This document shows, piece by piece, positions 4,661-64,000 of a stretch of DNA of 64,000 nt. The notes below the pieces were generated by a model. The model saw nothing but the letters and a program-made list of their open reading frames with translations, was not told the origin of the DNA and did not search any database. Every line of letters begins with the position of its first letter. The stretch's first letter is position 1. The DNA comes from Candidula unifasciata (taxonomy: Eukaryota > Mollusca > Gastropoda > Stylommatophora > Geomitridae): contig CAJHNH020008002.1 in NCBI GenBank assembly GCA_905116865.2, forward strand, positions 137,001-201,000. The letters are read 5' to 3'. The position numbers and the translations under genes were made by a program.

Positions 4661-37169
<32,509 letters not shown>

Positions 37170-41560: not shown

Positions 41561-43190
41561 ACGTGAGCATAAACACCGCGAAAACTGAGGGATTGAGGAT
41601 AGGCAGAAAACATGATACTATGAACGTTCATGTTAACGGTACTACAATGAAACAAGTATGAGAATTCAAATATCTAGGCAGCATATTTACGGAGGACGGC
41701 AGACTCGATAGAGAGATAGAAGCCAGAGTACAGAAGACAAATGCTGTTATCAACCATAGCACCCACTGCCTAGACACCCAAATGTTTTCCTTCCAGCAAA
41801 TCAGCAAATGAAAAATAACGTCTTTATCCCTACTTTATGTTATCGATGCGAAATATGGACAACGAATAGGGCACTAGAAAAAAATAACTACATTTGAAAT
41901 ACGCTGTTTTCGAAAGGTCACTTACAATACAAGAAGAGGCAGGGTTAATAGTTAACTGACACACAGGGAGTCAGAAATGAACCCTGGTAACGGCATAAAG
42001 TGAAAGCTGGAATACAAGGTCCGACAATTAAGTAATGAGACTGATTTTATTATGGCCAAGACAAAAATGCCTTTTATGAAGCAAAGAAAAGGCAGCCTAC
42101 GTTTATGATCTGGCAACTTTTCATTGCCGCCTGATAAGCAAACAACAAACAAGCCGCCATTTTATTGACCTAGTCAGAGTTGCATTGTTACGTAATCAGT
42201 ATGGGACAAAAAGCTAACATTAAATTCTGTTTAAAACACACACACAAAATGTGCTGCTAAGACAGATGAACTGATGTGACAAGTTTATAGAAATAATTGT
42301 TTATCTGGTGCATAGATTTGCAGGTGGTATTCGCGATTCAAAAATGGTGTAGAAATAATTACTAATGCGACTAGACATGGAAGCCCAATTTCTGTTTGTA
42401 ATGATGAACCCATTGCAAAAGTCACAGAACTGATACAAGAAGATCGCTGTTTTACTGTCAGAATGATGGCAGATTGAATCTGATGTTACCAGAGAGACCT
42501 TTCGTAAAATTTTAGTGCAAGATTTTGGCAAGAAAAAAGTTGCTTGCAGCTTTGTATCGCATTCGTTGTCTGATGACCAAAAACAACAGATTGAATACCC
42601 ACGAGACATAATCAAAACAGGAATTTTTGGCCCCCAAAAAATGTGTTCTCAACCATCCATCCCATTCCCCAGATTTGTCTCCCTGTGATTATTTTATATT
42701 CCCTAAATTAAAGTTATCATTTAAAAGACGCTTTTTTGACACCCATAGGGCCGTAACATTGACTTTAAGGGCCATAGCAACAAAAGAACTACAGCGGTCG
42801 TTCCAGTGTTTGTTAGATCGTGCTACTCACTGTAATAATGCACAAGGGGTTTACTTTCAATAAAATACATTTTATATCTTCAACTGTTGATTATTTTAAT
42901 TTTTATGGAATTTAGTCTCATTACTGAACTTAATTGTCAGATCTTGTATATTGGCTGACAGAGAATGAAAAGGTTCGGCCATCTAGTGAGAAGCAGCCAG
43001 ACCAAACGGAATATGGGACTTTCTACAGCATCTGGGAGGAAGACCAGAGGAAGACCAGGAAATTATGGATAAATGTTGTATATGAAACCTGCAAAAAGAT
43101 GAAACATCCATCACTCAGGCAACCGGAGAAGCGCAAGACGAATACAGAAAACCTCCTGGGTTTGTTTTTGGCCATTTGGTAAATCATAAA
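41560..43190 (+). mobile_element. decayed LINE interrupted by a mariner element
   Basis: Left part reads EFKYLGSIFTEDGRLDREIE and ITTFEIRCFRKVTYNTRRGR. The right part, after the mariner, reads RFGHLVRSSQTKRNMG and SGRKTRGRPGNYG. Together they form the C-terminal half of a LINE polyprotein with stops and frameshifts. A different family from 39145-39892. Confidence 0.8.
42015..42946 (+). mobile_element. internally deleted mariner-family DNA transposon
   Basis: Terminal inverted repeats CAAGGTCCGACAATTAAG (left) and CAAGATCTGACAATTAAG (right, reverse complement), each followed by TAATGAGACT. They are flanked by TA at 42013-42014 and 42947-42948. Inside, mariner-like KWCRNNY/NATRHGSPIS and RETFRKIL segments come before SPDLSPCDYFIFPKLKLSFK, which holds the last catalytic Asp. 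The middle, including the first two catalytic Asp residues, is missing. Stops present; non-autonomous. Confidence 0.88.
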
Positions 43191-52848: not shown

Positions 52849-52969
52849 CTAGTAATATGTCTCTCTCTCGACAAAGCCTCCTGGACTTCTTCGCAGTATC
52901 AGCTTGCGCAGCTCGTCATAGACGACAATGAGCAGACTGTAAGGAAGAGGAACCAGCCACCAGGTGAAC
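52849..52969 (-). CDS. ATP1A: gene 2 last coding exon
   Basis: 121 nt. [39 protein letters not shown], stop TAG. Six differences from gene 1 in 39 residues, mostly conservative. Confidence 0.95.
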
Positions 52970-55900
52970 CTGTTAGAAGAGACATACAATGGTAATAGCT
53001 CCATAGCTTTTCACAATGATCCGTCAGGTAAGACGCAACAGGTGGTAATGAGTTCATTTATTACAGTGATTTAAACAGACTACTCTGTTACATGTTCTCT
53101 TTCAGACAAAAATAACAAAATTAGCCTGAGCACACCAATCATGAACACTAATTCTCCCTTCTTAGCATCCACCGGCAGTAAACTCTGGGAGTTGTTCATC
53201 CATATGTAGAGTTTAATCTAGTTGCTGATTTGGTTTATTTTTAGATGCAGATTGATTGCTTCCTCACCTCACAGGCAAATTCACCAGCTTTGAAGAAAAC
53301 ATCTTTAGTTAGTCAACTTTCATGATATGCTTGTGGGCCGGGGGAGGGAGGGGGAAGGGATGTCAGTTTATTCTCAACTCCCCCAACCCAAATGGGCCCT
53401 AGCACCCACATGAAGACAACCATCCTAAACAAAATGATCGTGTAAAGACAAAGCAATAGTTGAAGATTCTAGAAGGTGACATGTAGAGGTCACATGTAGA
53501 GGTCACATGTAGAGGTCACATGTTCACTGGCTGGTCTGAAAGTAACAACAGGTAGATTTGGACACAGAAATCTTGGCTCTCAAGATTCAGCCAGCCTTAA
53601 AAATTGTACCTGAAAATGTCTAGGAAATAAAGGCAGCCAGCATGATGTGCACAACACCTGATGAGTGCTGGCTAGTTGATACAAACACTAAGTCTGTGCT
53701 AGTGTTGCATAAAGAGTCCTTTACTCTATGTATGAGTGGTTGGTACACATGCGTGGTTGGTACACATGAATGTACACATGCATGGTTGGTACACATGTAT
53801 GTATATATGAGTAGTTGGTACACATGTACATATGAGTGGCTGGTACACATGAACGTAGGAGTGGGTGATACACATTTATGTAGGAGTGTGTCTATTTTAT
53901 AAGCTATAATTGTTATCTATTGTCCCTCTGAGAATGTGTCTATTTTCTGTTATCTATTTGTTATCTATTGTCCCTCTGAGAATGTGTCTATTTTCTGTTA
54001 TCTATTTGTTATCTATTGTCCCTCTGAGAATGTGTCTATTTTCTGTTATCTATTTGTTATCTATTGTCCCTCTGAGAATGTGTCTGTATTTGCATAACTA
54101 TATTTGTTATCTATTGTCCCTCTGAGAATGTGTCTGTGTTTTCTGAGCTTTATTTGTTATCTGCTGTTTCTCTGATGCTGTGTCTGATAGTCATCTGTAT
54201 ATCAAGCCATGAACAGCTATTAAAGATGAGATATCCACAAAGTAGATAACCACCCACTTGTGTTTCTAAAATAGATATAAGCTCCAATTTGTATTATAGT
54301 TTGCATTTTTGAAATAGCCATTACCAGAACTTGTATTGCTGAAGTAGATATCTCCAGTCAGGAATTTCTAGAATAAATATCCAACCATGACATGTAGTTC
54401 TTAAATAAGCATAGTGCCTTTCCTAAACAGTTAAGTCCTGAATGTCTGAAGTAGTTGTAACTGAGCTCCTGAATGTCTGAAGTAGTTGTAACTGAGCTCC
54501 TGAATGTCTGAAGTAGATGTAACTAAGCTCCTGAATGTCTGAAGTAGATGTAACTGAGCTCCTGAATGTCTGAAGTAGTTGTAACTGAGCTCCTGAATGT
54601 CTGAAGCAGTTGTAACTGAGCTCCTGAATGTCTGAAGTAGTTGTAACTGAGCTCCCAAATGTCTGAAGCAGATGTAACTGAGCTCCCGAATGTCTGAAGT
54701 AGTTGTAACTGAGCTCCCAAATGTCTGAAGCAGATGTAACTGAGCTCCCGAATGTCTGAAGCAGATGTAACTGAGCTCCCGAATGTCTGAAGCAGATGTA
54801 ACTGAGCTCCTGAATGTCTGAAGCAGATGTAACTGAGCTCCTGAATGTCTGAAGTAGTTGTAACTGAGCTCCTGAATATCTGAAGTAGTTGTAACTGAGC
54901 TCCTGAATGTCTGAAGTAGTTGTAACTGAGCTCCTGAATGTCTGAAGTAGTTGTAACTGAGCTCCTGAATGTCTGAAGTAGTTGTAACTGAGCTCCTGAA
55001 TGTCTGAAGTAGTTGTACCTGAGCTCCTGAATGTCTGAAGTAGTTGTAACTGAGCTCCTGAATGTCTGAAGTAGTTGTAACTGAGCTCCTGAATGTCTGA
55101 AGTAGTTGTAACTGAGCTCCCTAATGTCTGAAGTAGTTGTAACTGAGCTCCCAAATGTCTGAAGTAGTTGTAACTGAGATCCTGAATGTCTGAAGTAGTT
55201 GTAACTGAGATCCTGAATGTGTGAAGTAGTAACTGAGCTCCTGAATGTCTGAAGTAGTTGTAACTGAGCTCCTGAATGTCTGAAGTAGTTGTAACTGAGC
55301 TCCTGAATGTCTGAAGTAGTTGTAACTGAGCTCCTGAATGTCTGAAGTAGTTGTAACTGAGCTCCTGAATGTCTGAAGTAGTAACTGAGCTTATCTTTTA
55401 AACAATAAATAAATAAATAATGTTTTTAAAACCAAATGATAAAATTTTAAACTATCAAGTTATGAAACTATAAATGATAACAACGTGAATCTAACCTGAG
55501 AGGCTGCAGTCGCAGAGCTGTGTCCAGTCCGGGACAGTAACAGAGAAATATGGCCAGACATGTCTCAAAAAGCAGTGCAAAGTTGAGGTGATGATTTCTA
55601 AAATTTCAACCAGGCAAAAGAAATTAGATCACTACTTTATATACAAAATCTCAAAGGTGACCAGATGTGCAAGCCACCCAGAATGTACACAAGCCACCCA
55701 GAATGTACACAAGCCACCCAGAATGTACACAAGCCACCCAGAATGTACACAAGCCACCCAGAATATACACAAGCCACAAGCCACCCAGAATGTACACAAG
55801 CCATGCAGTTAGCTCCAGCTGCTACCCTAAATGCATTATAAGCAAATCTAAGTTGTCCTTGAACACATGTCATTATTCTCTCAGCTGTTTGCTTTTCAGA

Positions 55901-58900
55901 TGATTTTAGTATTACTCTAATTGCTCTTCAGATGCATTTTCTTGTCTACCTGTGTGTGTGTGCACATGCATGCACCAGTTAATAGTTGAATAGTTAAGGG
56001 GGCAGTCCTATCTAAACTCCGTCAGTTACACAGACAGTGGTTTGAGTCATTGCAAAACTCTCCAGAGTGTGCAGTTACCTTCATATTTGTCCTAGGGCAT
56101 GCAGGCGTTGTTACTGAAAGAACTGATAGACTGGTAAATGTTACATTAATTGAAAATGGCCAGCCCATGGATCACGCAGACATTGTCAATGCCCTTAGAG
56201 AGATAGGACGTTCCAAGGAGTTTGGAAGCAACGTGTCCACATCACTGATAAGAATACCAGAACTGGGAGTAAAGATCAGCACAGCCAAGCATGAGAAGCA
56301 CACCGGATGCACAAAAAGTCTTGTCAACCAGCATAGGACTGGCACTATTAAACGTGCAACGCTGATGAATATGTTGAGAGGGGAATCTGATCACTATGGA
56401 TGTGTCGGGAGTGCTGTAAAGCTAATCCAACTCATAACTTTTATTGGGAGTTTGTGTATAGCTGGATGATTGATGTGAATTTTTAAAAAAAAATGAATGG
56501 TTAATGTGATTTTGAGTGTATCTAAATGGTTAATGGAGGTTTGTGTATAGCTGGATGGTTAATGGGAGTTTGTGTACAGTTGTGAGGTTAATGGAAGTTT
56601 GTATACAGCTGTGAGGTTAATGGAAGTTTGTGTATAGCTGTGAGGTTAATGGAAGTTTGTGTACAGCTGTGAGGTTATTGGGAGTTTTGTGTTTGTGAGG
56701 TACAGCTGTGAGGTTAGTGTATAGCTGTGAGGTAATGGAAGTTTGTGTATAGCTGTGAGGTTAATGGAAGTTTGTGTACAGCTGTGAGGTTAATGGAAGT
56801 TTTTATACAGCTGTGAGGTTAATGGAAGTTTGTGTACAGCTGTGAGGTTAATGGAAGTTTGTGTACAGCTGTGAGGTTAATGGAAGTTTGTGTACAGCTG
56901 TGAGGTTAATGGAAGTTTGTATACAGCTGTGAGGTTAATGGAAGTTTGTGTACAGCTGTGAGGTTAATGGAAGTTTGTATACAGCTGTGAGGTTAATGGG
57001 AGTTTGTGTACAGCTGTGAGGTTAATGGGAGTTTGTGTACAGTTGTGAGGTTAATGGAAGTTTGTGTGCAGCTGTGAGGTTAATGGAAGTTTGTGTACAG
57101 CTGTGAGGTTATTGGGAGTTTGTGTACAGCTGTGAGGTTAATGGAAGTTTGTATACAGCTGTGAGGTTATTGGGAGTTTGTGTACAGTTGTGAGGTTATT
57201 GGGAGTTTGTGTACAGTTGTGAGGTTAATGGAAGTTTGTGTACAGTTGTGAGGTTAATGGAAGTTTGTATACAGCTGTGAGGTTAATGGAAGTTTGTATA
57301 CAGCTGTGAGGTTAATGGAAGTTTGTATACAGCTGTGAGGTTAATGGAAGTTTGTGTACAGCTGTGAGGTTAATGGAAGTTTGTGTACAGCTGTGAGGTT
57401 AATGGAAGTTTGTGTACAGCTGTGAGGTTAATGGAAGTTTGTGTACAGCTGTGAGGTTAATGGAAGTTTGTGTACAGCTGTGAGGTTAATGGAAGTTTGT
57501 GTACAGCTGTGAGGTTAATGGAAGTTTGTGTACAGCTGTGAGGTTAATGGAAGTTTGTATACAGCTGTGAGGTTAATGGAAGTTTGTATACAGCTGTGAG
57601 GTTAATGGAAGTTTGTATACAGCTGTGAGGTTAATGGAAGTTTGTGTACAGCTGTGAGGTTAATGGAAGTTTGTGTACAGCTGTGAGGTTAATGGAAGTT
57701 TGTGTACAGCTGTGAGGTTAATGGAAGTTTGTGTACAGCTGTGAGGTTAATGGAAGTTTGTGTACAGCTGTGAGGTTATTGGGAGTTTGTGTACAGCTGT
57801 GAGGTTAATGGAAGTTTGTATACAGCTGTGAGGTTAATGGAAGTTTGTATACAGCTGTGAGGTTAATGGAAGTTTGTATACAGCTGTGAGGTTAATGGAA
57901 GTTTGTGTACAGCTGTGAGGTTATTGGGAGTTTGTGTACAGCTGTGAGGTTATTGGGAGTTTGTGTACAGCTGTGAGGTTATTGGGAGTTTGTGTACAGC
58001 TGTGAGGTTAATGGAAGTTTGTGTACAGCTGTGAGGTTAATGGAAGTTTGTGTACAGCTGTGAGGTTAATGGAAGTTTGTGTACAGCTGTGAGGTTAATG
58101 GAAGTTTGTATACAGCTGTGAGGTTAATGGAAGTTTGTATACAGCTGTGAGGTTATTGGGAGTTTGTGTACAGTTGTGAGGTTAATGGAAGTTTGTATAC
58201 AGCTGTGAGGTTATTGGGAGTTTGTGTACAGTTGTGAGGTTAATGGAAGTTTGTGTACAGTTGTGAGGTTAATGGAAGTTTGTATACAGTTGTGAGGTTA
58301 ATGGAAGTTTGTATACAGCTGTGAGGTTAATGGAAGTTTGTGTACAGCTGTGGAGGTTAATGGAAGTTTGTGTACAGTTGTGAGGTTAATGGAAGTTTGT
58401 GTACAGCTGTGAGGTTATTGGGAGTTTGTGTACAGCTGTGAGGTTAATGGGAGTTTGTGTACAGTTGTGAGGTTAATGGAAGTTTGTATACAGCTGTGAG
58501 GTTAATGGGAGTGTGTATACAGCTGTGAGGTTAATGGAAGTTTGTATACAGCTGTGAGGTTAATGGAAGTTTGTGTACAGCTGTGAGGTTAATGGAAGTT
58601 TGTGTACAGCTGTGAGGTTAATGGAAGTTTGTGTACAGCTGTGAGGTTAATGGGAGTTTGTGTACAGCTGTGAGGTTAATGGAAGTTTGCATACAGTTGT
58701 GAGGTTAATGGGAGTTTGTATACAGTTGTGAGGTTAATGGAAGTTTGTGTACAGCTGTGAGGTTAATGGAAGTTTGTATACAGCTGTGAGGTTAATGGGA
58801 GTTTGTATACAACTGTGAGGTTAATGAAAGTTTGTGTACAGATAGATGTTAATGGGAGTTTGTGTACAGATAGTTGTTAATGGGAGTTTTTGTACAGCTG

Positions 58901-61787
58901 TGAGGTTAATGGGAGTTTGTGCAGAAATACCTCTGTCTCTCAGTCAACCACCTAATGATGGGTAAATAGCATTCAAAGAAACAGATTTCCTAACTTGGGC
59001 ATCTAAGTCCACTGAATTTAACTGTAAATATCTGTTCCACAGGAAGCCTGCTCAACGACACATGGGAATCACCTCCCCTCGTCTTTCACTAGAGAGTATC
59101 AGAATCGCAAAGTCCTCCTTGTCCCATCAATAATTTTTTTTCCCAAAACAAATATTTTATCTGTACATAATTTGTCCCATTAAATGTCACTTCTTTAAAG
59201 TCAACAGGGACCTAGGGGTCACAAGGTGGACTGTGACTGGACATGCAAGTCCACTAATAGAACACTGACCAGCTGAGGAATCCAATCACTCGTTGTTGGA
59301 GGTTATCAAAGTCTGACTTCATTCCTTGATGGAAGAGTGACAGACAGACAACAGACTTAACTTCATTCCTTGATGGAAGAGTGACAGTCAGACAACAGAC
59401 TTAACTTCATTCCTTGATGGAAGACTGACAGTCAGACAACAGACTTAACTTCATTCCTTGATGGAAGACTGACAGTCAGACAACAGACTTAACTTCATTC
59501 CTTGATGGAAGACTGACAGTCAGACAACAGACTTAACTTCATTCCTTGATGGAAGAGTGACAGTCAGACAACAGACTTAACTTCATTCCTTGATGGAAGA
59601 CTGACAGTCAGACAACAGACTTAACTTCATTCCTTGATGGAAGAGTGACAGTCAGACAACAGACTTAACTTCATTCCTTGATGGAAGACTGACAGTCAGA
59701 CAACAGACTTAACTTCATTCCTTGATGGAAGAGTGACAGTCAGACAACAGACTTAACTTCATTCCTTGATGGAAGACTGACAGTCAGACAACAGACTTAA
59801 CTTCATTCCTTGATGGAAGAGTGACAGTCAGACAACAGACTTAACTTCATTCCTTGATGGAAGACTGACAGTCAGACAACAGACTTAACTTCATTCCTTG
59901 ATGGAAGAGTGACAGTCAGACAACAGACTTAACTTCATTCCTTGATGGAAGACTGACAGTCAGACAACAGACTTAACTTCTTTCCTTGATGGAAGACTGA
60001 CAGTCAGACAACAGACTTAACTTCATTCCTTGATGGAAGAGTGACAGTCAGACAACAGACTTAACTTCATTCCTTGATGGAAGACTGACAGTCAGACAAC
60101 AGACTTAACTTCATTCCTTGATGGAAGACTGACAGTCAGACAACAGACTTAACTTCATTCCTTGATGGAAGACTGACAGTCAGACAACAGACTTAACTTC
60201 ATTCCTTGATGGAAGAGTGACAGTCAGACAACAGACTTAACTTCATTCCTTGATGGAAGACTGACAGTCAGACAACAGACTTAACTTCATTCCTTGATGG
60301 AAGCACAGTCAGACAACAGACCTAACTTTATTCCTTGATGGAAGAGTGACAGTCAGACAACAGACTTAACTTCATTCCTTGATGTACAGAGTAACAGACA
60401 GACAACAGACTTATCCTTGATGGAAAAGTGACAGACAGGCAAGACTCACATCATTCCTTGATGGAAGAGAGACAACAGGCTTACAACATTCCTTGATTTA
60501 CAGAGTGATAGAGAGACAACAGACTTACAACATTCCTTGTTTGAATAGAGACAGACAGACAACAGACTTAAAACATTCCTTGATGTACAGAGTGACAGAC
60601 AGACAACAAACTTACAACATTCCTTGATGTACAGAGTGACAGACAGACAACAGACTTACAACATTCCTTGTTTGAACAGAGTGACAGACAGAAAACAGAC
60701 TTACAACATTCCTTGTTTGAACAGTGACAGGCGCCTGGTCTTGCAGATGATGAGGTCAGCCCACTGGACAATGACAATGGAGACAAAAAAGGCTGTGTGA
60801 CAGGTCTGTTCCAGCTTCTTTCTCTGTGTGTAGGTCTGAGGAAATACAAGCAGATTGTTAGACTGTGTGTAGATCTGAGGAAATACAAGCAGATTGTTAG
60901 ACTGTGTGTAGTGTCTGAGGAAATACAAGCAGATTGTTAGACTGTGTAGGTCTGAGGAAATACAAGCAGATTGTTAGACTGTGTAGGTCTGAGGAAATAC
61001 AAATAGATTATTAGACTGGGTGTAGGTCTGAGGAAATACAAGCAGATTGTTAGAATGTGTGTAGTGTCTGAGGAAATACAAGCAGATTGTTAGACTGTGT
61101 AGGTCTGAGGAAATACAAGCAGATTGTTAGACTGTAGGTCTGAGGAAATACAAATAGATTATTAGACTGGGTGTAGGTCTGAGGAAATACAAACAGATTG
61201 TTAGACTGTGTGTAGATCTGAGGAAATACAAGCAGATCGTTAGACTGTGTGTGGGTCTGAGGAAATACAAGCATATTGTTAGACTGGGTGTAGGTCTGAG
61301 GAAATACAAGCAGATCGTTAGACTGTGTGTAGGTCTGAGGAAATACAAGCAGATTGTTAGACTGGGTGTAGGTCTGAGGAAATTCAGATTGTTAGACTGG
61401 GTGTAGGTCTGAGGAAATACAAGCAGATTGTTAGACTGGGTGTGGGTCTGAGGAAATACAAGCAGATTGTTAGACTGGGTGTAGGTCTGAGGAAATACAA
61501 ACAGATTGTTAGACTGGGTGTAGATAAACAGTTGAAACAATATGCCATGCAGATGCCATGACTGTCCTGTTGGGTGTGACAGAAGCAGTCTGTAACATAA
61601 CTTATTTCTTACCCATTCCTGGCCGTATGAATCTTCCAAGTTATTGATGCCAACAGAGTCCCATTCCTCACGTATGCCGATTAGTCTAGACATCCAGAAG
61701 CCATTCTCTCCCATGACAACAATGTATGTGAAGAATCCAGCCAGTGCTTGAATCATTCCAATCTGTCCATATGTCATACTGATTAAC
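52849..61787 (-). CDS. ATP1A: second Na+/K+-ATPase alpha gene, last four coding exons (gene 2, partial)
   Basis: Four exons at 61613-61787, 60705-60835, 55496-55597 and 52849-52969 encode the C-terminal 175 residues of an alpha subunit (M7 to the end). Lengths and phases are identical to gene 1 exons 16-19. By hand alignment there are 28 differences in 175 positions, about 84% identity. The frame is intact and ends ETYY then TAG. The upstream exons are beyond 64000. Same orientation as gene 1, so this is a tandem duplicate. The differences are mostly conservative and the core motifs are kept, which suggests a working paralogue and not a pseudogene. Introns carry minisatellites unrelated to those of gene 1. 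Confidence 0.95.
52970..53905. other. gene 2 last intron, 5'-distal part
   Basis: Mostly single copy. Contains three tandem gaggtcacatgta units at 53480-53520, a SINE tail at 53620-53648, and short tggtacacatg repeats at 53745-53875. Confidence 0.6.
53905..54165. repeat. 46-bp repeat, about 5 copies
   Basis: tgtccctctgagaatgtgtc units in the last intron of gene 2. Confidence 0.94.
54425..55395. repeat. 31-bp minisatellite in the last intron of gene 2
   Basis: About 31 copies of ctgaatgtctgaagtagttg plus eleven bases, about 100 bp from the donor of the exon at 55496. Confidence 0.97.
55496..55597 (-). CDS. ATP1A: gene 2 exon matching gene 1 exon 18
   Basis: 102 nt. [20 protein letters not shown] and [14 protein letters not shown], donor GTTAGA. 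The most diverged of the four exons (9 of 34 residues differ from gene 1). Confidence 0.95.
55665..55805. repeat. 20-bp repeat, 7 copies
   Basis: aagccacccagaatgtacac units. Confidence 0.96.
56005..56468 (+). mobile_element. retrotransposon RNase H-like C-terminal fragment
   Basis: Open plus-strand frame: [20 protein letters not shown] resembles the last RNase H motif (HAGxxxNExAD) with its key residues eroded. It is followed by [20 protein letters not shown] and [20 protein letters not shown]. Antisense to gene 2, in an intron. Family recognition from memory; the frame is uninterrupted but lacks the rest of the element. Confidence 0.6.
56470..58925. repeat. 29-bp minisatellite, about 82 copies
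   Basis: The largest array in the window. gtgtacagctgtgaggttaa plus tggaagttt, with gtatac, gttgtg and attggga variants scattered throughout. Confidence 0.97.
58926..59319. other. single-copy intron sequence
   Basis: About 0.4 kb between the 29-bp and 44-bp arrays. No gene or element recognised. Confidence 0.5.
59320..60700. repeat. 44-bp minisatellite carrying the exon donor border (gene 2)
   Basis: About 30 copies. On the gene strand units contain CTGTCACTCTTCCATCAAGG then AATGAAGTTAAGTC, a copy of the 3' end of the exon at 60705-60835 plus its donor. The five or so units nearest the exon keep AATGTTGTAAGTC, identical to the real border. The distal ones read AATGAAGTTAAGTC. Confidence 0.94.
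60705..60835 (-). CDS. ATP1A: gene 2 exon matching gene 1 exon 17
   Basis: 131 nt. [20 protein letters not shown] to RLSLFKQGM, donor GTAAGT. The codon completed with the next exon gives Leu (TT+A), where gene 1 and the family have Lys. Both borders of this exon have been captured by minisatellites: 39-bp units on the acceptor side and 44-bp units on the donor side. Confidence 0.93.
60836..61530. repeat. 39-bp minisatellite of complete 3' splice modules (gene 2)
   Basis: About 17 units (35-39 bp). On the gene strand each reads CTAACAATCTGCTTGTATTT, CCTCAG, then ACCTACACACAG. That is a consensus branch site, a pyrimidine tract, the acceptor, and the first 12 bases of the exon at 60705-60835. 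Most units are 39 bp (13 codons), so use of an upstream unit could keep frame. Confidence 0.95.
61613..61787 (-). CDS. ATP1A: gene 2 exon matching gene 1 exon 16
   Basis: 175 nt. [39 protein letters not shown] and [11 protein letters not shown]; donor GTAAGA. The acceptor plus the first 12 exon bases are the seed of the 26-bp array immediately upstream. Confidence 0.95.
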
Positions 61788-62825
61788 CTGTGACATAGAC
61801 AATACTAATTAACCTGTGACATAGACAATACTGATTAACCTGTGACATAGACAATACTAATTAACCTGTGACATAGACAATACTGATTAACCTGTGACAT
61901 AGACAATACTGATTAACCTGTGACATAGACAATACTAATTAACCTGGGACATAGACAATACTGATTAACCTGGGACATAGACAATACTGATTAACCTGGG
62001 ACATAGACAATACTAATTAACCTGGGACATAGACAATACTGATTATCCTGGAACATAGACAATACTGATTATCCTGGAACATAGACAATACTGATTAACC
62101 TGGGACATAGACAATACTGATTAACCTGGGACATAGACAATACTGATTAACCTGTGACAGACAATACTGATTAACCTGGGACATAGACAATACTGATTAA
62201 CCTGGGACATAGACAATACTAATTAAAATGTGACATAGACAATACTGATTAACCTGGGACATAGACAATACTGATTAACCTGGGACATAGACAATACTAA
62301 TTAACCTGGGACATAGACAATACTAATTAACCTGGGACATAGACAATACTGATTAACCTGGGACAGACAATACTGATTAACCTGGGACATAGACAATACT
62401 GATTAACCTGGGACATAGACAATACTGATTAACCTGGGACATAGACAATACTGATTAACCTGGGACATAGACAATACTGATTAACCTTAGACATAGACAA
62501 TACTGATTAACCTGGGACAGACAATACTGATTAACCTGGGACATAGACAATACTGATTAACCTGGGACATAGACAATACTGATTAACCAGGGACATAGAC
62601 AATACTAATTAAAATGTGACATAGACAATACTAATTAACCTGTGACATAGACAATACTGATTAACCTGGGACATAGACAATACTAATTAACCTGGGACAT
62701 AGACAATACTAATTAACCTGTGACATAGACAATACTGATTAACCTGGGACAATACTAATTAACCTGGGACAATACTAATTAACCTGGGACAATACTAATT
62801 AATCTGAGACAATACTAATTAATCT
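61788..62825. repeat. 26-bp minisatellite carrying the exon acceptor (gene 2)
   Basis: About 40 units. On the gene strand each reads TATTGTCTATGTCCCAG then GTTAATCAGTAT, the acceptor and first 12 bases of the exon at 61613-61787. GTTAATC also fits a branch site about 22 nt before the next AG. Confidence 0.95.
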
Positions 62826-62839
62826 GAGATATGAACTAC

Positions 62840-63512
62840 TTTTCTCAACTCATGGAATGCCTCGTGGCATCAGGTCAAGAGGATGTCTCTGGAACAGGCT
62901 CTTTTATTCGCTTTGTATAAAACACTTTTCATTGTTTCTGATATTTCTGTGGTCCATCTTCTGCGTGACCAACCTCTAGCTCTGTTGCTGCTGTTTCTGT
63001 ATAACTTTGCTCTTTTTGGTGCCCTGTCTGTTGCCAATAATTTTACATGACCGTTTTATTTGTTGTCTATCTATAAAGTGCAGTATTGGTTCTGTGTTGA
63101 CTCTCCTCCTGATATCAACGATCCTAAGTTGATCTTTCCTCATAACAACTAGCACAGTACATAAACATTTCATTTTGTCGCGACTATTTTCCTTCTATCT
63201 TCTGAAGACAGTGTCCATGTTAGACAGTAATAGCACAGCAATGGTAAGAATATTGTGCTGAACAGGTGTTCTTTTAGTACTTCATAATCACATACTTGCA
63301 TTTCAAAATTGGTGCCATTTGGACTAAAACTTGACTGGCTTTATTACATCTTTGCTGAAATTCTGTACTAATTCTTTCGTCTTCTGAAAAAATGCTCCCC
63401 AGTACGTAAAATCCTTCGCCTGTTTAAGCTGGTGTTAATCAATTTTAATATTGGCTTTTCTTCCTTTCCTGGAGAAAGTCATCGCTTTTGGTCTTTATAT
63501 CACAGTTGTAGC
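62840..63512 (-). mobile_element. decayed LINE fragment
   Basis: Minus-strand RPKAMTFSRKGRKANIKIDD, LKQAKDFTYWGAFFQKTKEL, DQLRIVDIRRRVNTEPILHF and IDRQQIKRS, the post-palm part of a LINE RT, with frameshifts. Same strand as gene 2. Confidence 0.75.
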
Positions 63513-63679
63513 ATTCCGAGGGGAGTCTATTAATATGAACATGCATGAACATACATGAAAATACATGAACATACAGTAATAAACCATTTCTTTATCTAGC
63601 GGTACGCAGTACCAACACCTTTCTTCCAGCACTACTGTAATAGACACTTTATGATGAGTACCAGCAGTATTGTACTGGT

Positions 63680-63770
63680 CACAGACACACACACAGTAAT
63701 GCACTGACCACAGACACACACACAGTAATGCACTGACCACAGATACACACACAGTAATGTATTGACCACA
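63680..63770. repeat. about 30-bp repeat, 3 copies
   Basis: cagacacacacacagtaatg units. Confidence 0.9.
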
Positions 63771-63779
63771 CAGACTAAT

Positions 63780-64000
63780 AACTAACCAGCATTGTCAAAC
63801 TAGCGCTTGTAGACAGTGCTGTCAAACTAGCGCTTGTAGACAGCGCTGTCAAACTAGCACTTGTAGTCAGCACTGTCAAACTAGCACTTGTAGTCAGCGC
63901 TGTCAAACTAGCACTTGCAGACAGTGCTGTCAAACTAGCACTTGCAGACAGCATTGTCAAACTAGCACTTGTAGACAGCATTGTCAAACTAGCCCTTGTA
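63780..64000. repeat. 27-bp minisatellite, cut by window end
   Basis: Eight copies of cttgtagacagtgctgtcaa plus seven bases, in the next upstream intron of gene 2. Confidence 0.95.

What the first reader, a model, noticed from the sequence alone, without database searches (positions are those of the whole stretch)
60836..61530. About 17 tandem, complete 3' splice-site modules in front of one exon
Each unit on the gene strand holds CTAAC, then about 20 nt with a pyrimidine-rich stretch, CAG, and the first 12 bases of the following exon (ACCTACACACAG). The unit is therefore a self-contained acceptor with an exon stub. Most units are 39 bp, so choosing an acceptor one or more units upstream would add 13-residue blocks ([17 protein letters not shown]) in frame between EW and TYTQRKK, with no stop in the commonest unit. 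Either the spliceosome discriminates between near-identical sites, or the protein has length variants in the M7-M8 extracellular region.
Basis: partly seen in the sequence, partly recalled or inferred. Interest (0 to 1): 0.88.

Follow-up and report, generated by a model that had tools for sequence, protein, structure and literature searches.

The report
Tandem array of duplicated splice acceptors
In a land snail's sodium-pump gene the signal that marks where an exon starts is repeated 18 times in a row, a kind of repeat described before in lancelets, and the copy touching the exon is probably the one used, which makes it a natural test of how cells choose among near-identical splice sites.

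Summary
The array is real. On the minus strand, 18 branch-point/polypyrimidine/CAG modules lie in a 777-nt intron of a Na,K-ATPase alpha gene: 17 decoys, then the authentic acceptor (intron end 60836). The organism is almost certainly the land snail Candidula unifasciata. Its public protein P0010 equals my 18-exon model letter for letter and so uses the exon-proximal acceptor. The in-frame-block reading fails for 16 of 17 decoys; only the nearest adds 13 residues without a stop. The array fits a known kind: lancelet "mirages", minisatellites duplicating an exon/intron boundary (PMC3087553, passages). Junction-spanning arrays also sit at 10 of 98 splice sites of four ATPase genes, this one included, and in my judgement at 5 of 100 sampled myosin/kinesin exons. 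The focal decoys are as good as the real site: 9 of 17 are identical from branch point to AG, and 16 of 17 score at least as high. Choice must rest on context, most likely exon definition favouring the exon-proximal copy. New here: the lineage (no mollusc case among the listings I saw), the density, and a graded natural experiment. No RNA was examined.

The parts
60824..61523 (-). Focal array: 18 acceptor modules (17 decoys + authentic), period 39, reaching 12 nt into the exon
60705..60835 (-). Gene A exon 16 of the P0010 model ([17 protein letters not shown]...), 131 nt; authentic acceptor at intron end 60836, donor GGAATGTT|GTAAGT at 60704
   Evidence: model equals P0010
61613..61787 (-). 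Gene A exon 15 (...EDSYGQEW), 175 nt; donor GTAAGA at 61612
59316..60730 (-). Donor-side array of the same exon: 44-bp unit, 32.6 copies, 26 nt of exon end inside. Of 32 stub copies in the first 1400 intron nt, 3 keep GTAAGT, 23 read GTTAAG (mostly after a paralogue-like exon end ATGAA), 6 are other
61776..62751 (-). Acceptor-spanning array of exon 15: 26-bp unit, 37.8 copies, 12 nt of exon inside; AG intact in 34 of 37 scored copies
26413..28285 (-). Paralogue B, acceptor-spanning array (intron B3): 41-bp unit, 46.2 copies, 16 nt of exon inside; AG intact in 45 of 45 scored copies
12864..13102 (-). Paralogue B, acceptor-spanning array (intron B13): 43-bp unit, 5.7 copies, 9 nt of exon inside; homologous array in gene A intron 13
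7361..7987 (-). Paralogue B, array flush with the acceptor of the exon equivalent to the focal one: 78-bp unit, about 8 copies, 1 exonic nt; not counted as junction-spanning
52849..61787 (-). 3' part of Na,K-ATPase alpha gene A (last 4 of 18 modelled exons); the other 14 lie upstream of the window on the same contig
4661..33683 (-). Na,K-ATPase alpha gene B (paralogue), 18 modelled exons, 1007 aa; the upstream boundary of its first modelled exon was not mapped

Best explanation
The array is a minisatellite grown from a tandem duplication that straddled an exon/intron boundary, the kind called a 'mirage' in lancelets. The founding unit held the branch point, polypyrimidine tract, CAG and the first 12 exon bases, and repeated unit gains and losses made 17 extra copies inside the intron. 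The copy touching the real exon keeps the coding sequence and is the acceptor in use. Because flanking introns are long (777 and 5,107 nt) and the exon short (131 nt), the exon is most likely recognised across itself. The acceptor nearest the authentic 5' splice site and the real exon body is then chosen, and rare use of a decoy mostly yields a stop codon. SHOWN by sequence: the array, the intact signals, the other junction-spanning arrays, and the frame consequences. INFERRED: the duplication route, exclusive use of the proximal site (public annotation only), exon definition, and decay of mis-spliced RNA.
For: Array and junction anatomy. Junction-spanning arrays at 10 of 98 splice sites of four ATPase genes: 7 acceptors, 3 donors. 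In two other families taken by match rank and not by repeats, I judge 4 of 60 myosin-head exons and 1 of 40 kinesin exons to carry them, all on the donor side. Splice signals stay intact in most decoys: AG in 17/17, 34/37, 45/45, 14/15, 23/25, 3/4, 3/4 and 3/5 of the eight acceptor arrays (only copies within 6 mismatches of 24 nt were scored, which favours intact ones). Local sequence cannot discriminate at the focal exon: 9 of 17 decoys are identical from CTAAC to AG, one (+61334) over 30 nt up and 12 nt down, and 16 of 17 score at least as high as the real site on a matrix from the 48 other real acceptors. The public protein equals the exon-proximal model. Lancelet precedent in which duplicated splice sites do not disturb splicing: passages of PMC3087553 and PMC3902484. 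Exon-centred proximity rule, with two identical 5' splice sites resolved exclusively to the exon-proximal one in minigenes: passages of PMC9225289.
Against: No RNA was examined. P0010 comes from an annotation that is mainly homology-based (GeMoMa with RNA-seq introns, combined by EVM; passages of PMC8496239), so minor isoforms are not excluded. For 3' splice sites PMC9225289 finds an overall preference for the upstream site, which long introns only reduce. Decoys are not equal to the real site everywhere: on the matrix, decoys at or above the real site were 8 of 37 in A14, 7 of 25 in D7, 9 of 15 in A13, 43 of 45 in B3, 26 of 28 in D10, and in the smaller sets 1 of 4 (A10 acceptor), 2 of 13 (A10 donor), 3 of 5 (A16), 1 of 4 (B13) and 2 of 5 (D11). 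In the donor array behind the focal exon most copies (23 of 32) have an altered donor, so there the sequence may discriminate. Excess of arrays at junctions is only moderately supported: 10 seen against means of 4.65 (P 0.012) and 2.55 (0 of 4000) under two simple nulls, and two of the ten, A13 and B13, are not independent. Length polymorphism and normal splicing, both features of lancelet mirages, could not be tested.
Confidence: 0.8

Rival explanations
1. Functional length variation: decoy acceptors are used and add 13-residue blocks to the M7-M8 loop of the pump.
For: The nearest decoy gives an open, in-frame +13-residue product; 10 of 17 units are 39 bp.
Against: The other 16 decoys hit stops. 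No insertion at this point in 119 readable of the 120 best homologues. Paralogue B has a different 78-bp array, and B, C and D show no acceptor-junction copies at the equivalent acceptor. P0010 lacks the block. From recall, the SYGQ motif beside the insertion point contacts the beta subunit, so an insert should be harmful.
Confidence: 0.07
2. Assembly artefact: the array is created or strongly mis-sized by long-read assembly.
For: The draft rests on PacBio (25.6x) and ONT (2.1x) long reads with Illumina data (passages of PMC8496239), and tandem arrays are hard to assemble exactly.
Against: The array (~700 bp) is far shorter than the PacBio read N50 of 9.9 kb. Units are individually marked, with a four-unit block (units 9-12 and 13-16) duplicated with small differences. 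The same architecture recurs at other loci. Copy number may still be approximate.
Confidence: 0.05
3. Regulatory sink: the tandem acceptors bind U2AF/U2 snRNP and slow or tune splicing of this exon, so the array is kept for expression control.
For: Two alternative 3' splice sites can be occupied at once and concurrent occupancy inhibits splicing (abstract of PMC5389562). AG is intact in 17 of 17 focal decoys.
Against: No acceptor-junction copies at the equivalent acceptor of paralogues B, C and D. Intact signals are also expected from young or homogenised arrays. Arrays fill 66% of the bases of the 20 introns inside the window whether or not they reach a splice site.
Confidence: 0.06
4. Splice-junction-targeted mutation: the duplication process itself prefers exon/intron boundaries, rather than arrays merely reaching boundaries because introns are full of them.
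For: 10 junction-spanning arrays of 103 against null means of 4.65 and 2.55.
Against: Small, partly non-independent sample; nulls ignore packing and selection; the myosin/kinesin sample gives only 5 of 200 edges.
Confidence: 0.3

Closest known systems
[quoted passage not shown] PGBD5 repeats likened to them)
   Same: Tandem copies include splice signal and exon stub; both 5' and 3' boundaries affected; unit sizes overlap (Adh3 10-72 bp; here unit spacings 26-61 bp); normal exon retained (PMC3087553 and PMC3902484 passages).
   Different: Mollusc rather than cephalochordate; up to 46 copies here against 6 and 3 repeat units in the two BflGb6 haplotypes; five junction-spanning arrays in gene A, two in B, three in D, none in the part of C mapped; splicing here not tested by RT-PCR.
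Intron gain by tandem duplication of AG/GT proto-splice sites (Rogers model, as cited in PMC3087553)
   Same: Tandem duplication carrying splice signals.
   Different: No new intron is seen: genes A and B have 17 mapped introns each; the duplicates sit inside existing introns.
NAGNAG and other short tandem acceptors (recalled)
   Same: Several AGs compete for one exon.
   Different: Here each AG has its own branch point and tract, 35-40 nt apart, 18 in series.

Membership tests
Mirage (boundary-spanning minisatellite) | Tandem repeat spans an exon/intron boundary | tested here: met
   12 exonic nt inside the array at the focal acceptor; 10 of 98 splice sites in four genes
Mirage (boundary-spanning minisatellite) | Repeat units carry AG or GT splice signals | tested here: met
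   AG 17/17 at the focal array; other arrays
Mirage (boundary-spanning minisatellite) | Both 5' and 3' boundaries can be affected | tested here: met
   7 acceptors and 3 donors by TRF; both sides of gene A exon 16
Mirage (boundary-spanning minisatellite) | Normal mRNA splicing persists | not testable with these tools
   No RNA held; the public protein P0010 equals the normal-splicing model
Mirage (boundary-spanning minisatellite) | Length instability between haplotypes or somatically | not testable with these tools
   The 26-nt module occurs only at this locus of the assembly, so no second haplotype to compare
Mirage (boundary-spanning minisatellite) | Described taxon: cephalochordates | tested here: not met
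   Contig length 437,821 equals that of the Candidula unifasciata contig holding P0010, and P0010 is encoded here letter for letter. This concerns where the kind was described, not its mechanism
Intron gain by tandem duplication | A new intron position appears | tested here: not met
   Genes A and B each have 17 mapped introns, and the 17 exon pairs after the first have equal lengths

The most novel reading that the evidence does not exclude
In this snail a duplication process strikes exon/intron boundaries preferentially and often, leaving thousands of splice sites with strings of near-perfect decoys. Correct splicing survives only because the spliceosome reads exon context and proximity rather than site sequence, and the distal copies preserve older versions of the exon edge. 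As a rough extrapolation, 5 of 200 sampled edges, applied to two edges of each of the 147,783 annotated CDS exons (PMC8496239), gives on the order of 7,000 sites.
Probability: 0.3. Interest if true: 0.75.

Novelty: new member of a known kind. Interest (0 to 1): 0.55.

Why it matters
Splice-site choice among identical competitors is usually studied in designed minigenes. Here a genome supplies the experiment in series: 17 decoy acceptors, nine identical to the real one from branch point to AG, at distances of 39 to 651 nt, with a string of decoy donors behind the same exon. RNA-seq that already exists for this species (PRJEB41346, named in PMC8496239) could measure choice by distance and by exon context. 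The arrays may also keep older exon edges, and they show how introns can grow through their splice sites without breaking genes.

Tried and rejected
A first gene-model script failed; one search ran with three exons wrong or missing, mended. In gene D, 2 of 13 introns were unmapped and left out; the D10 donor was first placed from a weak match and then checked by eye.

Sampling of myosins and kinesins: TRF flagged 10 of 100 loci as overlapping the match edge (L052, L071, L073, L081, L083, L090; L099, L110, L126, L132). On reading the sequences I kept five: L052, L073, L081, L090 and L110 (in L110 the exact donor was not settled, but the repeat holds the exon end). I dropped L071 (ends just before the AG), L083 (short chance-like repeat), L099 (begins after the donor), and L126 and L132 (match read through intronic repeat). 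Further loci with repeats near an edge or weak junction copies, not counted: L039, L049, L050, L054, L056, L067, L086, L089 and L109, L114, L117, L119, L125.

Literature: ten searches ran (one search failed on a term). Several lists were cut, for example 10 of 357 papers. I opened passages of four papers and the abstract of one; the rest were seen as listings only. The only boundary-spanning minisatellites I saw were in lancelet papers; the library lacks most subscription journals.
Full report
WHAT IS THERE. On the minus strand of the window, two Na,K-ATPase alpha genes stand in tandem. Gene B (4661-33683) has 18 modelled exons and 1007 codons before the stop. Gene A has its last four modelled exons in the window and fourteen more upstream on the same contig. 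The 49 mapped introns of four genes all begin GT and end AG; the mapper allowed only GT or GC and AG. Its map of gene B agreed with the manual one at 17 of 17 introns. The focal array fills 89% of the 777-nt intron between gene A exons 15 and 16.

THE ARRAY. There are 18 copies of TTTCCTCAG, each with an upstream branch-point-like CTAAC (16) or CTAAT (2). Seventeen are decoys and the eighteenth is the authentic acceptor. Unit lengths are 39 (10), 37 (3), 35 (2) and 40 (2). Units 9 and 13 are identical, and units 9-12 and 13-16 form a duplicated four-unit block with small differences, as expected from multi-unit slippage or unequal exchange. The exon stub in the decoys is most often ACCTACACCCAG (6 of 17); the real ACCTACACACAG is in 1 of 17.

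THE FOCAL DECOYS ARE NOT WEAKER THAN THE REAL SITE. Nine of 17 are identical to the real acceptor from CTAAC to AG, and the 26-nt module occurs nowhere else in the assembly. The decoy at +61334 is identical over 30 nt upstream and 12 nt downstream. On a position matrix from the 48 other real acceptors, 16 of 17 decoys score at or above the real site, itself a weak site (16th percentile of 49). Whatever chooses the real site is not its own sequence. This is not so in every array: in A14 only 8 of 37 and in D7 only 7 of 25 decoys reach the real score.

CONSEQUENCE OF A WRONG CHOICE. Only the nearest decoy gives an open product, with 13 extra residues. Acceptors 1-3, 13 and 14 also lie a multiple of 3 away but meet a stop; the other eleven are out of frame and meet stops. 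Among the 120 best listed homologues (of 8000 scored) no insertion was seen here: 108 matched the uninterrupted pattern, 11 more were uninterrupted on reading, and P0109 could not be read.

ORGANISM AND ANNOTATION. The window lies on contig C6979 of G000, 437,821 bases long. P0010, an unnamed partial protein product of Candidula unifasciata, is listed on a contig of exactly that length. The 18 joined exons of gene A give P0010 letter for letter, 1011 of 1011 residues. It therefore uses the exon-proximal acceptor. The genome paper (passages only, PMC8496239) describes assembly from PacBio, ONT and Illumina reads, gene prediction by homology with RNA-seq introns, and a median intron of 2,025 and exon of 129 bases. 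It gives 1.29 Gb in 8,586 scaffolds, while G000 holds 1.34 Gb in 7,176 contigs, so the held set is not exactly the one described; I did not resolve this.

IT IS ONE OF MANY. In 49 mapped introns of four ATPase genes, tandem repeats of period 10 or more fill 53.7% of intron bases in 103 arrays. Ten of these run at least 4 nt into an exon: acceptors A13, A14, A15, B3, B13, D7, D11 and donors A10, A16, D10. By direct junction copies the acceptor of A10 also has 4, and A6 has one that I take as chance. Seven of the 49 introns, in genes C and D, have no array at all. Two other families were then sampled in order of match score, with 220-250 nt of flank: the first 60 of 74 myosin-head matches and the first 40 of 122 kinesin matches. 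TRF flagged 10 of these 100; after reading I keep five donor-spanning arrays, L052, L073, L081, L090 and L110, that is 5 of 200 edges and none on the acceptor side. Flank repeat fractions there were 12.2% and 10.8%.

WHY BOUNDARIES. Two simple nulls that move each array or its founding unit along its own intron expect 4.65 and 2.55 spanning arrays; 10 were seen. The excess is suggestive, not firm: A13 and B13 share one array through what looks like gene conversion, since the last 60 nt of exon 13 and the first 60 nt of exon 14 are identical between A and B, while the other exon ends compared are 67-98% alike.

HOW IT MOST LIKELY WORKS. The exon is short and both neighbours are long introns, which in the framework of PMC9225289 (passages) means recognition across the exon, with the two sites nearest each other across the exon preferred. 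There, two identical 5' splice sites were resolved exclusively to the exon-proximal one. For 3' sites that paper finds an overall upstream preference that long introns only weaken, so the acceptor case is less certain. Exon 16 of gene A is flanked by decoy acceptors on one side and decoy donors on the other, and in both cases the annotated site is the exon-proximal one. On the donor side, however, 23 of 32 stub copies have GTTAAG and only 3 keep GTAAGT, so sequence may help there. The purine-rich AGAAAGAAGCTGGAACAG after the stub may act as an enhancer; that is inference. The abstract of PMC5389562 reports that two acceptors can be occupied at once and that this inhibits splicing, so a cost of the array is possible.

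THE ARRAYS AS A RECORD. In the donor array behind exon 16, distal copies read AATGAAGTTAAGT, like the exon end ATGAA of paralogues B and C, while the live gene A exon reads ATGTT. The focal stubs ACACCCAG likewise share CCCAG with B and C. The simplest reading is that distal copies keep an older exon edge. The residue after QGM does vary among homologues (K in 52 of 95 sites read, L in 12, P0010 among these), so the direction of change is inferred from the paralogues.

COMPARISON WITH THE KNOWN. Lancelet 'mirages' are the same kind of object (passages of PMC3087553 and PMC3902484). The original Adh3 paper was not found under the identifier that I tried. The listings of my ten searches showed no molluscan case that I recognised, within the limits of that library and of cut lists. 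The finding is therefore a new member of a known kind, in a new phylum as far as I could see, dense, and well suited to test splice-site choice.

Noticed in passing
59316-60730: Donor-side array of the same exon; distal units preserve a paralogue-like exon end (ATGAA) with an altered donor (GTTAAG, 23 of 32 stub copies), 3 copies keep GTAAGT.
   Followed up: partly
Genes A and B, e.g. window 12521-13439 and its gene A counterpart upstream of the window: Mosaic similarity between the tandem paralogues (exons 2, 3, 7, 9, 10 near 95% nt identity, 11 and 13 near 92%, the other ten compared 73-85%, exon 1 not compared) suggests gene conversion that carried a boundary array with it.
   Followed up: partly
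L026/L027 region, C480:212493 and 216361: ATPase gene D: a donor array of 28 scored copies, all with GTAAGT and all in frame and open if used, and an acceptor array of 25 scored copies.
   Followed up: partly
4661-33683 and 52849-64000, with L029-L032: Tandem repeats of period 10 or more cover 57-75% of genes A and B (L032 47%, between the genes 37%) against 13% in five other 5-kb stretches (2-27% each) and 4-24% around genes C and D. Why this locus is so rich is unexplained.
   Followed up: partly
P0002 and P0016: Physella acuta also holds two alpha proteins, both listed on a contig of 129,361 bases, so the tandem pair may be old.
   Followed up: no
P0001: The Plakobranchus protein model holds a stretch beginning [14 protein letters not shown] and ending MQPLR twice in tandem, perhaps alternative exons fused by annotation.
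   Followed up: no
13568-14373 and 42288-42860: Open frames that look by eye like reverse transcriptase and mariner-type transposase pieces (translations; labels recalled, not searched).
   Followed up: no
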